Below, piece after piece: positions 54,301-58,090 of a DNA stretch of 64,000 nt. The stretch spans positions 992,001 to 1,056,000 of the forward strand of contig NZ_CP066776.1 in the NCBI RefSeq assembly GCF_010681825.2. Direction: 5' to 3'. How positions within the stretch are numbered: the stretch's first letter is position 1; each line of letters starts with the position of its first letter. The notes below the pieces were generated by a model. The model was not told where the DNA came from. It made no database searches and saw nothing but the letters and a program-made list of their open reading frames with translations. The stretch comes from Sulfuriroseicoccus oceanibius. GTDB lineage: Bacteria; Verrucomicrobiota; Verrucomicrobiia; Verrucomicrobiales; SLCJ01. The position numbers were made by a program, and so were the translations under genes.

Positions 54301-55465
54301 GATCGGATCCGTGATCAACATTGCTGACGGCGACAAGATCCGTAAGGGATCGACCCTCCTGACGTGGGATCCATACAACGTGCCAATCATCACCGAGAAG
54401 GCCGGTAAGGTGGAGTTCCGTGACATGATCATGGGCATCACCATTGGTCAGGACGAAAGCTCCGGAGACGACAGCGGCGCGATCAAGGTGATCGAGCACA
54501 AGGACGAACTTCACCCGCAGATCGTCATCGTTGACGTGGCAAGCGGCGAAGTCCAGGCCTCGTACTCGGTGCCGACCGGTGCCAACCTTTCCGTCAAGGA
54601 AGGTGAAGTCATCACCGCTGGTACCCAGGTTGCCCGTACACCGCGCAAGGTGTCAAAGACCAAGGACATTACCGGTGGTCTTCCGCGTGTTGCCGAGTTG
54701 TTCGAAGCGCGTACACCGAAGGATCCATGCGTCATCGCCAAGATCGACGGTGTCATCGACATCAACGGAACCGTCCGCGGTAAGAAGAAGGTCATCGTCC
54801 GCGATCCAGAGACTCTGGAGGAGGAAGATCACCTCATCCCAATGAACAAGCACATCATCGTCCAGCAGGGCGACACGGTGAAGCGTGGCCAGCAGCTGAC
54901 CGAAGGTCCGGCGGTGCCACACGACATCCTCGACGTGCTTGGGCCGAACGAGCTTCAGGCTCACCTCACCAACGAGGTGCAGGAGGTTTACCGCCTCCAG
55001 GGTGTGGAGATCAATGACAAGCACATTGAGATCATCATCCGCCAGATGCTTCGCAAGGTGAAGGTGACCGAGCCAGGTGACTCCGATTTCCTTTGGGGCG
55101 ACCAGGTCGAGAAGAGCACCTTCGAGCGCATCAACCGCGAGATCATCGAAGAAGGTGGTAAGCCTGCTGAAGGCGAGCCAGTCCTCCTCGGTATCACCAA
55201 GGCGTCGTTGGAAACCGAGTCGTTCATCTCGGCGGCTTCCTTCCAGGACACCACCCGCGTGCTCACCGAAGCGGCAACCCTCGGCAAGATCGATACCCTC
55301 GACGGCTTCAAAGAGAACGTCATCATGGGTCACCTCATCCCTGCTGGTACTGGCTTCCGCCAGATCAACAAGGTCGAGGCCATCGAGACCGAGATCGCTG
55401 AAGAGTTCGCCTCTGCGGACACCGAAGCGGCTGAGCCACAAGCCTCCGGCGACGACGTGCTCTAA
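51314..55465 (+). CDS. rpoC: DNA-directed RNA polymerase subunit beta prime
   Basis: 1383 residues: N-terminal zinc finger [20 protein letters not shown] (about 74-93), active-site [16 protein letters not shown] (about 460-475, three Asp for Mg), second zinc site [13 protein letters not shown] (about 887-899), [16 protein letters not shown] in the trigger loop region, and a C-terminal end [20 protein letters not shown]. The segment 55090-55238 near its 3' end is the source of the 149-bp copy at 57942-58090. Confidence 0.98.
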
Positions 55466-55495
55466 TCCGGCTCTCTAGCTGAAAAACTCAAACCG

Positions 55496-55535
55496 GCCGG
55501 GCCGCGGAGTCTCTCTCCGCGGCCCGGCTTTTTTG
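55496..55535 (+). terminator. Intrinsic terminator of rpoBC
   Basis: GCCGGGCCGCGGAG-TCTCT-CTCCGCGGCCCGGC, a perfect 14-bp stem, then TTTTTTG, 30 nt after the rpoC stop. A diverged second copy of this terminator and its flank occurs at 56337-56650. The rest of the gap to the next ORF (to 55837) has no supported gene. Confidence 0.95.
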
Positions 55536-55837
55536 TGCTCCGCGCATTTGTGGTGAGAGGGGCAGTCAGTTAGACCACGAGCCCAAGTAGTTGCTGAATC
55601 CAGTGTGGGATCTGTAGTACCCTGGAGGTGTGGTGATTCGGGCGAAAACGCGTGGAATCCGTCTATCTGAGGGACAATCAGCGGGAATTGATGGAGGCGG
55701 GGTGAAATGGCTTGCCGATGAACTGTCGGGTGCGCAATGTATCGCGGATGGTTAGAAATGATGCATGTCCGCGGTTTTCCTGGTCGAAATCATGGCAGTT
55801 TAGTTCTGAAGTTTTACCGGCATTTTAAATTGGGTTT

Positions 55838-56314
55838 ATGGTCGGTCATTGTGTATTAGAGTATCGGTATTCGTGGTTACAAGAAATTGTAACCGCTGCT
55901 GGGTGCGCGCTTGTCGCTTGCGTGTTTTTTTTGTGTTCGCGTGAGTGGGGGTGGATGTTGATTCCTGGAGGGGGGTTCCTGTGTTTGTTTTTTTACACCG
56001 TATGCACCTTTAGGAGACGTGGCAGGTTTTTCGTTCGTATTGAAGGAGATTGTCTTGAGTATGGTGATAACTTGCGAGTGAAGTCCATTGAGCTTTCCTC
56101 GATTACCAAGGTGATATATCGCAGTGTGCCTGAGCATTCTTCAATATACATACATAGAGATCGATCAGAATGTGTCGAGCTTGATGGCCGATGGATTCTC
56201 TTGGGTGGAGGGTTTGTAGAGGAGTTTCTTTGGTATTTTGAGAAAGAGGGGAAGCTCAGCATCACCGATAAAGATCGTGGGTGGTTGGAGGATAGGTGGA
56301 AGAGAAAAATTTAG
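55838..56314 (+). CDS. Unrecognised small membrane protein (two helices plus PH-like domain)
   Basis: 158 residues starting MVGHCVLEYRYSW. Two hydrophobic helices near residues 17-35 and 38-55 (VTAAGCALVACVFFLC; GWMLIPGGGFLCLFFYTVC) are followed by a soluble beta-rich domain (RRGRFFVRIEGDCLEYGDNL, RVKSIELSSITKVIYRSVP) that looks like a bacterial PH-type fold, then a helical end. No family named. Base composition is clearly more AT-rich than rpoC or tuf, suggesting foreign origin. It sits between the rpoBC terminator and that terminator's duplicated copy. Confidence 0.6.
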   Translation: MVGHCVLEYRYSWLQEIVTAAGCALVACVFFLCSREWGWMLIPGGGFLCLFFYTVCTFRRRGRFFVRIEGDCLEYGDNLRVKSIELSSITKVIYRSVPEHSSIYIHRDRSECVELDGRWILLGGGFVEEFLWYFEKEGKLSITDKDRGWLEDRWKRKI

Positions 56315-56320
56315 TGGAGA

Positions 56321-56343
56321 AATGACTGCAGGTGTCAAGTGAG
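56321..56343 (+). repeat. 23-bp junction sequence, copy 1
   Basis: Begins AATGACTGCAGGTGTCAAGT and ends with GAG; identical over all 23 bases to 57918-57940. It sits immediately before the duplicated post-rpoC terminator segment. It is not found at the original rpoC end. Confidence 0.75.
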
Positions 56344-56650: not shown

Positions 56651-56656
56651 GATGTT

Positions 56657-56842
56657 ATGCCGTTTGTGTGGGCGTTGCAGTTGGATGGTACTCCAGCTCA
56701 GGGCGAGAAAGGTATAGTTCCGAACTACAAAGAAATTGATCAGTCGATTATGCACGAAGGGTGTTGTATTGGGGAGTATCTCAAGCTGCGTCCACCAATC
56801 GCTAATGATAAGCTGGAGCTTGCACCTGGGAATTGTCCATGA
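56657..56842 (+). CDS. Small unrecognised ORF coupled to the following gene
   Basis: 61 residues from the ATG at 56657 (MPFVWALQLDGTPAQGEKG, then IVPNYKEIDQSIMHEGCCIG and EYLKLRPPIANDKLELAPGN) with normal amino acid balance. Its TGA overlaps the ATG of the next gene (ATGA), which supports translation. A longer frame from 56561 begins inside the duplicated segment. No family is recognised. Confidence 0.45.
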   Translation: MPFVWALQLDGTPAQGEKGIVPNYKEIDQSIMHEGCCIGEYLKLRPPIANDKLELAPGNCP

Positions 56843-57768
56843 AATACACATTAATAAGTATCGTTCTCCTAGTTGCAGGTTTTCTGGGGTGGTGGCTGCT
56901 CAGTTTGGAGCCCAAAGGGAATCCAATAGCGGTTATTCAGGACGCAGATGAGCAAATTGCTTCTTCACTTCCTGACGAGGGGGTAATAGCTAGAGCAGCA
57001 GCAGCAGATGGCGAGAGTAGAATTAGAACGTTATGGGAAAAACACGTATATCCCCAACGATTGAAAGTTGCTGACGTTGACTTTCCTGTGGTGTTTGAGG
57101 GAGATGTCCCTGAGGAGCTTAAGCAGGTGATACTATCTGATGTTCATATGATTTATGGTCATATGGAAAGTCACGAGATTTACGAGCTTCATAACGAGAT
57201 CTCGGTTGGAGGTGGGAATATAGTGCTCACTAAAAGGCTCGGTTTTAGAGGGCGCGGGCGGCATTGGCCTGAAAAACATCAGGGGGCTTTTGGAGGTATC
57301 GCAATGCTAGATAGCGAAGATACAGTGGTTTTCCCCAAACAGCTTACTGATCATTATGAGTTAGCATGGCGCGCAAGGAATGACGCCCCTGCAAAATACG
57401 AGAAGCTTGAAATATTTATCGATTGGTTGAATTCCGCCTCAATGGAGGAGTTGGGCGCAGATAATCCGTACTGGTTGTACGGATACGATGGTGTGTCTGA
57501 CGAGAATCCAGAGTTAGCTGCTGAAATGAGAGCTCGTCTGTTGGGTGACGATAGGAGTGTCTTGAAGTTTCGCCATCCCAGTATTCTGGAGTTCACGTAT
57601 GTAGATCAGGAGGTCTTGAAAAAGGATAAGGCCGAAGGGCAGCTTCCTGTCGGAGTCACACTAGCTGACGGATTCTATTTGGATCAGAGTAACGTCCCTG
57701 TTCAGCAAGCTCTCTATTTGTATCATGGTGGCAAGTGGTACATAGCGTTTGCTCCCCCTGGAACCTGA
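56839..57768 (+). CDS. Unrecognised exported/membrane-anchored protein
   Basis: 309 residues: one N-terminal helix (MKYTLISIVLLVAGFLGWWL, then LSLEPKG), so it is either anchored or exported. The rest is soluble with segments FPVVFEGDVPEELKQVILSD, EISVGGGNIVLTKRLGFRG, YELAWRARNDAPAKYEKLEI and a C-terminal QQALYLYHGGKWYIAFAPPG. No domain is recognised. Composition is AT-richer than the flanking core genes. It is the second accessory gene in the patch between rpoC and the rpoC fragment; coupled to the small ORF upstream. Confidence 0.6.
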   Translation: MKYTLISIVLLVAGFLGWWLLSLEPKGNPIAVIQDADEQIASSLPDEGVIARAAAADGESRIRTLWEKHVYPQRLKVADVDFPVVFEGDVPEELKQVILSDVHMIYGHMESHEIYELHNEISVGGGNIVLTKRLGFRGRGRHWPEKHQGAFGGIAMLDSEDTVVFPKQLTDHYELAWRARNDAPAKYEKLEIFIDWLNSASMEELGADNPYWLYGYDGVSDENPELAAEMRARLLGDDRSVLKFRHPSILEFTYVDQEVLKKDKAEGQLPVGVTLADGFYLDQSNVPVQQALYLYHGGKWYIAFAPPGT

Positions 57769-57917
57769 TCTTTGAACGGTTCGCAAACTATGTCGTTTGT
57801 TGGCGCGAGACGGTTGGAGATGTGTGAGAGTTTGTACGAACGCATCATGTTTTTTTGATAAGCGATCATCCAGCCACCATTTGAGTCAGCTTGCCTGCTG
57901 AGACCGTTGTTAAAGGA

Positions 57918-57940
57918 ATGACTGCAGGTGTCAAGTGAGC
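57918..57940 (+). repeat. 23-bp junction sequence, copy 2
   Basis: Identical over 23 bases to 56321-56343, and directly joined to the duplicated rpoC fragment. CCCT follows both copies, directly here and after one extra A in copy 1. Confidence 0.75.
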
Positions 57941-57941
57941 C

Positions 57942-58090
57942 CTTTGGGGCGACGAGGTCGAGAAGAGCACCTTCGAGTGCATTAACCGCGAGGTCATCGA
58001 AGAAGGTGGTAAGCCTGCTGAAGGCGTGCCAGTCCTCCTCGGGATCACCAAGGCGTCGTTGGAGATCGAGTCGTTCATTTCGGCGGCTTG
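57942..58090 (+). pseudogene. 149-bp internal fragment of rpoC
   Basis: Matches 55090-55238 without gaps, about ten mismatches. In the rpoC frame it reads [20 protein letters not shown] then [20 protein letters not shown] and ends at a TGA just at the end of the match (SFISAA-stop). A stop also precedes it in frame, so it cannot be expressed as RpoC. Some changes alter amino acids (Q to E, R to C, E to V), consistent with relaxed selection. Confidence 0.9.

What the first reader, a model, noticed from the sequence alone, without database searches (positions are those of the whole stretch)
55090..58090. Internal piece of rpoC duplicated 2.7 kb downstream of rpoC
57942-58090 repeats rpoC positions 55090-55238 over 149 bp without gaps, with about ten differences. 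It is not the end of rpoC but an internal segment, cut at both sides and closed by stops. Housekeeping genes rarely leave such pieces. A single integration by homology would usually leave the true 3' end, which is absent here, so a more complex duplication or a repeated insertion process is implied. It resembles the partial-copy arrays seen in polymorphic toxin loci, but with rpoC as the donor.
Basis: seen in the sequence. Interest (0 to 1): 0.8.

Follow-up and report, generated by a model that had tools for sequence, protein, structure and literature searches.

The report
Displaced rpoC end behind inserted genes
A stray piece of the essential RNA-polymerase gene rpoC, lying 2.5 kb behind the intact gene, is most likely what is left of an old gene end that was pushed aside when small accessory genes were inserted next to rpoC together with a replacement end; related bacteria show the same kind of event in fresher form.

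Summary
The repeat is real: rpoC 55090-55238 recurs at 57941-58089 (149 bp, 9 differences). It is not alone. The rpoC terminator region is also copied (56347-56441). A whole-genome search found no other rpoC pieces, and a 22-base motif M stands 1-3 bases before each copy. Between them lie accessory genes X and Y, each behind a remnant (R) of a RAYT transposon. Before Y are the last 67 residues of a large protein's C-terminal domain; in three other genera that domain directly precedes a Y homologue.

Two other genomes carry an rpoC 3' end behind an insert next to rpoC. In a third, a Y-bearing insert lies between a complete peptidyl-prolyl isomerase gene and a second copy of its 3' end. For one, a relative shows the empty site, and the downstream copy runs on into the native flank: it is the displaced native end. 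In two, the copies differ almost only synonymously, so they were alleles from different lineages. Best explanation: recombination-anchored insertion that rebuilds the host gene's 3' end and displaces the old one, as in Rhs tip displacement but with a housekeeping gene as anchor. Here the displaced end has eroded. No relative shows the empty site for this genome.

The parts
51314..55465 (+). intact rpoC (1383 aa), anchor gene
   Evidence: TIGR02386 rpoC_TIGR 1793 bits; ORF
55090..55238 (+). segment of rpoC present again downstream (donor coordinates)
55475..55570 (+). rpoC 3' flank with terminator-like hairpin and T run, present again at 56347-56441
55577..55794 (+). R: dispersed repeat, 3' flank of a RAYT (Y1 transposase) element
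   Evidence: 16 matches in the own genome, the query itself and short partial matches included; directly follows a REP_Tyr_transpos-like gene at C1:1834161-1835228
55838..56314 (+). gene X, 158 aa, no known family
   Evidence: single-sequence model with helices H14-36 and H43-61, pLDDT 53
56322..56343 (+). motif M, first copy
   Evidence: 22 nt; 5 exact + 2 near copies in the genome, reversed-pattern control 0
56347..56441 (+). copy of the rpoC terminator region
   Evidence: 88% over gene nt 4162-4257; 3 nt after M
56430..56619 (+). R': second copy of R
   Evidence: 73%
56639..56842 (+). remnant of the C-terminal end of a large protein, cut short on its left near R'
   Evidence: 67-68 columns aligned, 41-49% identical to the last residues of the proteins that precede Y homologues in G075, G031, G083
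56833..57768 (+). gene Y, 311 aa, partner gene of that C-terminal domain
   Evidence: matches in 5 other genomes of the order, two of them weak; 3 directly after the domain
57918..57939 (+). motif M, second copy
57941..58089 (+). A': decayed internal rpoC fragment, read as the eroded displaced rpoC 3' end
   Evidence: 94%, 5 nonsyn + 4 syn differences; at residue 1301 A' has Ile, 90 of 90 aligned relative loci have Thr

Best explanation
A' (57941-58089) and the terminator copy (56347-56441) are anchor remnants of serial insertions of accessory-gene units behind rpoC. Incoming DNA carried an rpoC 3' end with terminator, followed by a cargo gene. It recombined with the resident rpoC. The gene stayed whole, because the incoming 3' end replaced the resident one, and the resident 3' end was displaced to the far side of the cargo, where it is free to decay. 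Here this happened at least twice: unit 1 = R-X-M, unit 2 = terminator copy-R'-tip remnant-Y-M. The oldest displaced end (A') later lost its distal part. The cargo are small partner genes of the immunity-gene type, one still attached to the remnant of a large protein's C-terminal tip. SHOWN: the copies, the lack of other rpoC pieces in a whole-genome search, M before both, the tip remnant plus Y; in G051, the insertion and the native identity of the downstream copy; in G075 and G203, allelic-type divergence of the two copies. INFERRED: that this genome's pieces arose the same way, the order of events, loss of the distal part of A', the immunity function of X and Y, and whether the incoming DNA was a circle integrated by single crossover or a linear molecule joined illegitimately at one end.
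For: The only rpoC-derived pieces found in the genome are these two, both at this locus (40 of 47 first-look candidates scored). M directly before both. G051: 476-bp repeat (93.9%) of the rpoC 3' end plus terminator around a 6.3-kb insert; relative G141 has rpoC and the following region contiguous, without the cargo in the 14-kb stretch compared; G051's downstream copy continues into the flank seen in G141. G203: 305-bp repeat (96.1%) around a 3.2-kb insert. G075: 586-bp repeat (91.3%) of a peptidyl-prolyl isomerase 3' end around tip domain-Y homologue-186 aa. Copy divergence: G075 pS 0.30, pN 0.02; G203 pS 0.174, pN 0.012. Break points differ among cases and the joints share little or no sequence.
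Against: No relative shows the empty site for this genome: same-genus G001 has no detectable homologue of X, Y or the next three genes in the 18-kb stretch around its rpoC. A' itself has a mixed signal (pS 0.118, pN 0.044), fitting decay, so import is not shown by A' alone. A' lacks the true 3' end, unlike the three comparison cases. The terminator copy (88%) is more diverged than A' (94%) although the stacking order would make A' the older one; non-coding sequence and a different donor could explain this, untested. G051 and G203 cargo was not found to be related to X or Y (Y: no match in either genome at E 0.01, where their rows fall in the part not listed but outside the 6 matching genomes; X not tested). 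M was not found within 400 bp upstream of the displaced copies in G051, G203 or G075 (best 10-11 mismatches of 22). Kirchberger et al. [quoted passage not shown]
Confidence: 0.7

Rival explanations
1. In-place duplication: part of rpoC and its terminator were duplicated locally (slippage or unequal exchange) and the copies decayed; the genes between came in later and separately.
For: A' shows decay-type change, 5 nonsyn / 4 syn; both pieces come from one stretch of 481 bp.
Against: In G075 and G203 the two copies differ almost only synonymously (ratio 0.07), so they diverged as working alleles before being joined. G141 lacks both the cargo and a second copy, and G051's second copy is the native end. 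Both copies here sit directly behind the same motif M.
Confidence: 0.15
2. Filler capture: short rpoC fragments were picked up as patches when broken DNA was joined, with no link to gene replacement.
For: In G018 a 108-bp internal rpoC piece (98.1% to its own rpoC) lies in an Rhs locus on another contig, cut at both sides.
Against: Random capture would not be expected to pick two pieces of one 481-bp stretch, both beside rpoC itself and none found elsewhere.
Confidence: 0.12
3. RAYT-driven mobility: M is the cut end of a mobile unit moved by the RAYT (Y1/HuH) transposases of this genome, and the fragments behind M are its target flanks.
For: The 22 bases are shared by all 7 copies with at most 2 mismatches, contain TGAC/GTCA arms (fold -3.1 kcal/mol), stand before a RAYT gene at C1:59975, and RAYT remnants R precede X, Y and several other cargo-like genes.
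Against: The second RAYT gene of that type (C1:2943874) has no M within 6 mismatches in the 16-kb stretch around it. The comparison cases lack M near the displaced copy. A transposase target flank does not explain a duplicated upstream gene end.
Confidence: 0.12
4. RNA-templated copy: a reverse-transcribed, 5'-truncated piece of the rpoC mRNA was inserted.
For: In G203 and G051 the repeat runs from inside rpoC to about the end of the terminator.
Against: Homology would end there anyway, because flanks differ. In G051 the downstream copy continues past the terminator into the native chromosomal flank. Synonymous divergence of 0.17-0.30 in G203 and G075 does not fit a recent copy.
Confidence: 0.03

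Closest known systems
Rhs C-terminal tip displacement (Jackson et al. 2009, PMC2935791; passages read)
   Same: Fragments of the upstream anchor gene, of varying length, lie behind displaced C-terminal tips; the proposed mechanism is a homologous crossover of a circle in the conserved part, with the old tip shunted downstream.
   Different: The anchor is a housekeeping gene (rpoC, or a peptidyl-prolyl isomerase in G075) that keeps its own function and gains no new tip; the cargo lies behind it.
Sequential T6SS effector displacement and immunity-gene arrays in Vibrio cholerae (Kirchberger et al. 2017, PMC5361080; passages read)
   Same: Old modules are pushed back and immunity genes retained; homology-facilitated illegitimate recombination is suggested as a possible mechanism.
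   Different: There the array sits at the T6SS cluster itself; here beside an unrelated essential gene, with pieces of that gene between the units.
Homology-facilitated illegitimate recombination and single-crossover integration (Amarir-Bouhram et al. 2011, PMC3240628; passages read)
   Same: In E. coli, most Lac- clones carried a duplication of part of lacZ (109-950 bp in 14 sequenced clones), ascribed to single crossover of a circle lacking part of the homology; the repeats in the three comparison genomes are 305, 476 and 586 bp.
   Different: Laboratory conjugation versus natural genomes; no selectable marker or known donor here.
Integrase-mediated genomic islands that restore the 3' end of their target gene (recalled, no call)
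   Same: Target gene's 3' end rebuilt, displaced original end at the far side of the insert.
   Different: No integrase family matched X, Y or the 93-aa ORF of the insert, and there is no fixed break point.

Membership tests
Rhs / polymorphic-toxin displacement array | fragments of the upstream anchor gene between downstream modules | tested here: met
   terminator copy and A'
Rhs / polymorphic-toxin displacement array | anchor gene is an Rhs, CDI or T6SS effector gene | tested here: not met
   the anchor is rpoC; no RHS family in X, Y or the 93-aa ORF
Rhs / polymorphic-toxin displacement array | displaced C-terminal tip followed by its partner gene | tested here: met
   last 67 aa of a conserved domain directly before Y; the domain (323-416 aligned columns, 40-50% identical pairwise) directly before the Y homologue in G031, G075, G083
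Rhs / polymorphic-toxin displacement array | tip is toxic and partner gives immunity | not testable with these tools
   no known family for either at a curated cut-off
Integrase-mediated genomic island | site-specific recombinase in the element | tested here: not met
   no recombinase family in X, Y or the 93-aa ORF
Integrase-mediated genomic island | fixed attachment site in the target gene | tested here: not met
   different break points in rpoC in G000, G051, G203
Homology-facilitated import (illegitimate joining or single crossover of a circle) | homologous anchor on one side, non-homologous joint on the other | tested here: met
   anchor duplicated, joints with little or no shared sequence
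Homology-facilitated import (illegitimate joining or single crossover of a circle) | the anchor copies come from different lineages | tested here: inconclusive
   clear in G075 and G203 (ratio 0.07), mixed in G051 (0.24) and in this genome (0.38)
RAYT / REP element | palindromic repeat tied to a RAYT gene | tested here: inconclusive
   M stands before one RAYT gene but not near its relative
Integron gene cassette | attC site and integron integrase | not tested
   no attC model was run; no integrase family in X, Y or the 93-aa ORF

The most novel reading that the evidence does not exclude
An integrase-free mobile class of immunity-type gene units lodges behind essential genes by importing a spare 3' end of the host gene, and in this genome has acquired a defined right end, the 22-base motif M, possibly cut by a RAYT nuclease, so that any conserved gene can serve as landing site.
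Probability: 0.15. Interest if true: 0.85.

Novelty: new variant of a known kind. Interest (0 to 1): 0.62.

Why it matters
Tip displacement and immunity arrays are known at toxin loci. If the reading is right, the same recombination works with housekeeping genes as anchors: highly conserved genes offer homology for gene import almost anywhere, and the import silently swaps the 3' end of an essential gene for another lineage's allele. Displaced-end fragments are then readable traces of recent gene import, and allele swaps inside rpoC matter for its use as a phylogenetic marker.

Tried and rejected
Read as an old decayed paralogue: rejected, because the search of the own genome found no longer rpoC-like gene.

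tRNA or known RNA as landing site: ARAGORN on window 40-64 kb found two tRNAs, at 41.7 and 43.3 kb, none near the insert. Rfam on 55.0-58.4 kb gave one match far below its gathering score (20 bits against 108). A tRNA-like stretch at the G051 cargo start was not called by ARAGORN.

M as the REP of the RAYT2 gene: tested and left open. M in relatives: 0 of the 37 other genomes searched with up to 2 mismatches.

Control surveys. rpoB (215 of 239 genomes matched) shows no genome with an extra small piece by its match counts: one match, or two with best E-values that fit the normal split at an indel, and four in G186 (two contigs) and G214. rpoB is not operon-terminal, so it is a weak control, and its lower-ranked rows were not listed. 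The rho survey was unusable: most genomes have two or more matches, probably ATPase paralogues (recalled reason).

The rpoC survey (220 of 239 matched; in many genomes only 8 first-look candidates were scored) gave 23 genomes with two matches, this one included. I listed rows for 12 of the other 22. Ten, all of genus g3, were not opened and were taken as split matches from their best E-values. Of the 12: G051 and G203 are displaced ends; G018 is the piece in an Rhs locus; G152, G154 and G164 have pieces at or very near contig ends and were dropped as assembly breaks; G208 and G210 have second long homologues at about 50% identity; G026 and G222 have weak hits; G003 and G170 are split matches.

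For the conservation of A' sites, 109 relative loci were tried and 90 gave a plus-strand match; 19 were dropped, and some loci may be the same genome.

Structure models of Y (without its first three residues, pLDDT 37) and X (53) were too poor for a fold search, so none was run. Affinity of the rpoC 3' end to G001 was uninformative (81.7% and 79.6% for the two halves compared).

Papers. By titles and listings only, I saw no paper on rpoC fragments of this kind: one search gave none, one search listed 10, not opened. One search listed 10 of 60, none on housekeeping anchors by title. Searches gave context listings. Passages of three papers were read.
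Full report
OBSERVATION. The window repeats rpoC 55090-55238 at 57941-58089: 149 nt, 94%, no gaps, 9 differences, of which 5 change the amino acid. A search of the whole own genome (3,496,488 bp, one contig) with rpoC plus its terminator gives five matches at E up to 0.1 (40 of 47 first-look candidates scored): rpoC itself, this copy (E 1.7e-59), a second piece (gene nt 4162-4257, the terminator region, 88%, at window 56347-56441), and two weak minus-strand matches at the hairpins of the terminator and its copy. 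So all rpoC-derived pieces found in the genome lie here.

ANATOMY. The order is rpoC - terminator - R - gene X (158 aa) - M - terminator copy - R' - tip remnant - gene Y (311 aa) - M - A'. M is a 22-base motif found 5 times exactly and twice with 1-2 mismatches in this genome (7 places, reversed-pattern control 0), and in 0 of 37 other genomes searched with up to 2 mismatches. M ends one base before A' and three bases before the terminator copy. R is a dispersed repeat with 16 matches, the query itself and short partial matches included. At C1:1834161-1835228 it directly follows a gene that resembles REP-associated tyrosine transposases (41.8 bits, below the curated cut-off of 80).

THE CARGO. 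Of the 16 R matches, 13 have a same-strand ORF of at least 100 aa starting between 60 nt before and 400 nt after the R end; one of these 13 is a 23-nt match inside another gene, and the three at C1:2023 kb have none. One stretch, C1:1365676-1369808, has four R-plus-gene pairs, the last closed by M. One M lies 57 bp behind a 151-aa gene that directly follows an Rhs protein of 1924 aa, that is, in the immunity-gene position. X and Y match no Pfam or NCBIfam family at a curated cut-off, nor do eight other such genes in Pfam.

Y is informative. Of 239 genomes of the order, 6 match it, this one included (two of the five others are weak, E 9e-5 and 0.007). In G031, G075 and G083 the homologue directly follows a large protein (843, 512, 1695 aa) with a shared C-terminal domain (323-416 aligned columns, 40-50% identical pairwise). 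In the window the last 67 residues of that domain (41-49% identity; E 4e-18 to 2e-13 in a comparison with just these three proteins) stand directly before Y, cut short on the left near R'. Unit 2 is therefore a truncated tip plus its partner gene. That Y is an immunity protein is inferred from position only. In G022 and G011 I did not see the pair in the ORF listing.

OTHER CASES. A survey of 239 genomes of the order with the rpoC C-terminal part found rpoC in 220. Rows were listed for 12 of the 22 other genomes with a second match. Two more displaced ends next to rpoC emerged: G051 and G203. With this genome that is 3 of 220, a lower bound: three genomes with pieces at or very near contig ends were set aside and ten were not opened. 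In 81 other rpoC 3' neighbourhoods (80 from named genomes plus G001; 71 with at least 1 kb downstream, 468 kb in all) no rpoC piece lies behind rpoC except one 19-nt chance match.

G051: a 476-bp direct repeat (93.9%) of the rpoC 3' end plus terminator flanks a 6.3-kb insert. Relative G141 has rpoC 95.9% identical in the 5' part, no match to the cargo in the 14-kb stretch compared, and, about 50 bp behind its rpoC terminator region, the region that in G051 lies beyond the second copy. In G051 the downstream copy, not the one in the intact gene, continues into the flank seen in G141. So the downstream copy is the native rpoC end, displaced; a transposase gene sits in that flank. In the first 420 alignment columns the two copies differ at 24 sites; both relatives G141 and G112 agree with the upstream copy at 17 and with the downstream copy at 1; the other 6 are mixed. 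The displaced end is decaying, and two stop codons have appeared in it.

G203: a 305-bp repeat (96.1%) flanks 3.2 kb with a 962-aa gene. The four relatives fetched show no match to that cargo in the 10-kb stretches compared, but none to the following flank either.

G075: the module that contains the Y homologue lies between a complete peptidyl-prolyl isomerase gene (named by eye from its sequence, no family search) and a second copy of that gene's 3' end: 586 bp, 91.3%, both ending at the stop codon. This is homologous cargo with another anchor gene. G031 and G083, with the same pair, show no such flanking repeat in the stretches read.

IMPORT OR DUPLICATION. Uncorrected Nei-Gojobori proportions between the two copies: G075 pS 0.30, pN 0.02; G203 pS 0.174, pN 0.012; G051 pS 0.14, pN 0.034; this genome pS 0.118, pN 0.044. 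In G075 and G203 the two copies diverged as functional alleles, in separate lineages, before they came to lie together. A local duplication cannot do that unless both copies stayed under selection, which is unlikely for a 5'-truncated 74-codon rpoC end. In this genome decay dominates: at residue 1301, 90 of 90 aligned relative loci have Thr and A' has Ile; at 1264, 87 of 90 have Gln, 3 Lys, none Glu, the residue of A' (109 loci tried, 19 without a usable match). At residues 1277 and 1288, by contrast, the residue of A' also occurs in relatives.

MECHANISM. The picture matches Rhs tip displacement (passages of PMC2935791: anchor-gene fragments of varying length behind displaced tips, single crossover of a circle) and V. 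cholerae immunity arrays (passages of PMC5361080: perhaps homology-facilitated illegitimate recombination, noted there as rare in laboratory tests). In E. coli, single-crossover integration of circles lacking part of the homology left duplications of 109-950 bp (passages of PMC3240628), the size range of the 305-586 bp repeats here. The break points differ among cases and the joints share little or no sequence, so no site-specific integrase is indicated, and none was matched in X, Y or the 93-aa ORF.

WHAT REMAINS OPEN. There is no empty site for this genome, since G001 shares nothing found behind rpoC. The terminator copy is more diverged than A' though the stacking order makes A' older. M is constant at both joints here and recurs at five other places, but was not found near the displaced copies of the comparison cases, so it is either a property of this genome's units or a cut end made by a nuclease such as a RAYT; a second RAYT gene of the same type has no M near it. 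The controls for how special rpoC is are weak.

VERDICT. New variant of a known kind.

Noticed in passing
L160 6415-6522 (G018:C55): A 108-bp internal piece of rpoC, 98.1% identical to that genome's own rpoC, lies between an orphan gene and an Rhs fragment gene followed by a small gene; tandem repeats with AAAGGGACAG follow it. It starts about where the window's A' ends in the protein (ESFISAA)..
   Followed up: partly
own genome C1:1365676-1369808 (L047): Array of four R-element plus orphan-gene pairs, the last closed by motif M; looks like a store of partner or immunity genes separated by RAYT remnants.
   Followed up: partly
own genome C1:1827174-1833463 (L048): Rhs-type protein of 1924 aa with signal-like start, a 151-aa gene behind it, then motif M.
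   Followed up: partly
own genome C1:59975-60249 (L045): Two M copies 253 bp apart with a 180-bp internal piece of the adjacent RAYT gene (94%) between them; M again followed by a piece of a local gene.
   Followed up: partly
window 58243-59499: 418-aa gene on the minus strand with an 18-bp-period repeat (RPEKPERP-like) at its C-terminus and a second internal repeat at 58978-59177.
   Followed up: no
L186 (G051), about 9847-11515 on the reverse strand: Transposase-like gene of 491 aa inserted just behind the displaced rpoC end, with inverted ends.
   Followed up: no
G152, G154, G164 rpoC contigs: Assemblies break inside or near the rpoC 3' part with overlapping pieces; possibly hidden displaced ends, not resolvable here.
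   Followed up: no
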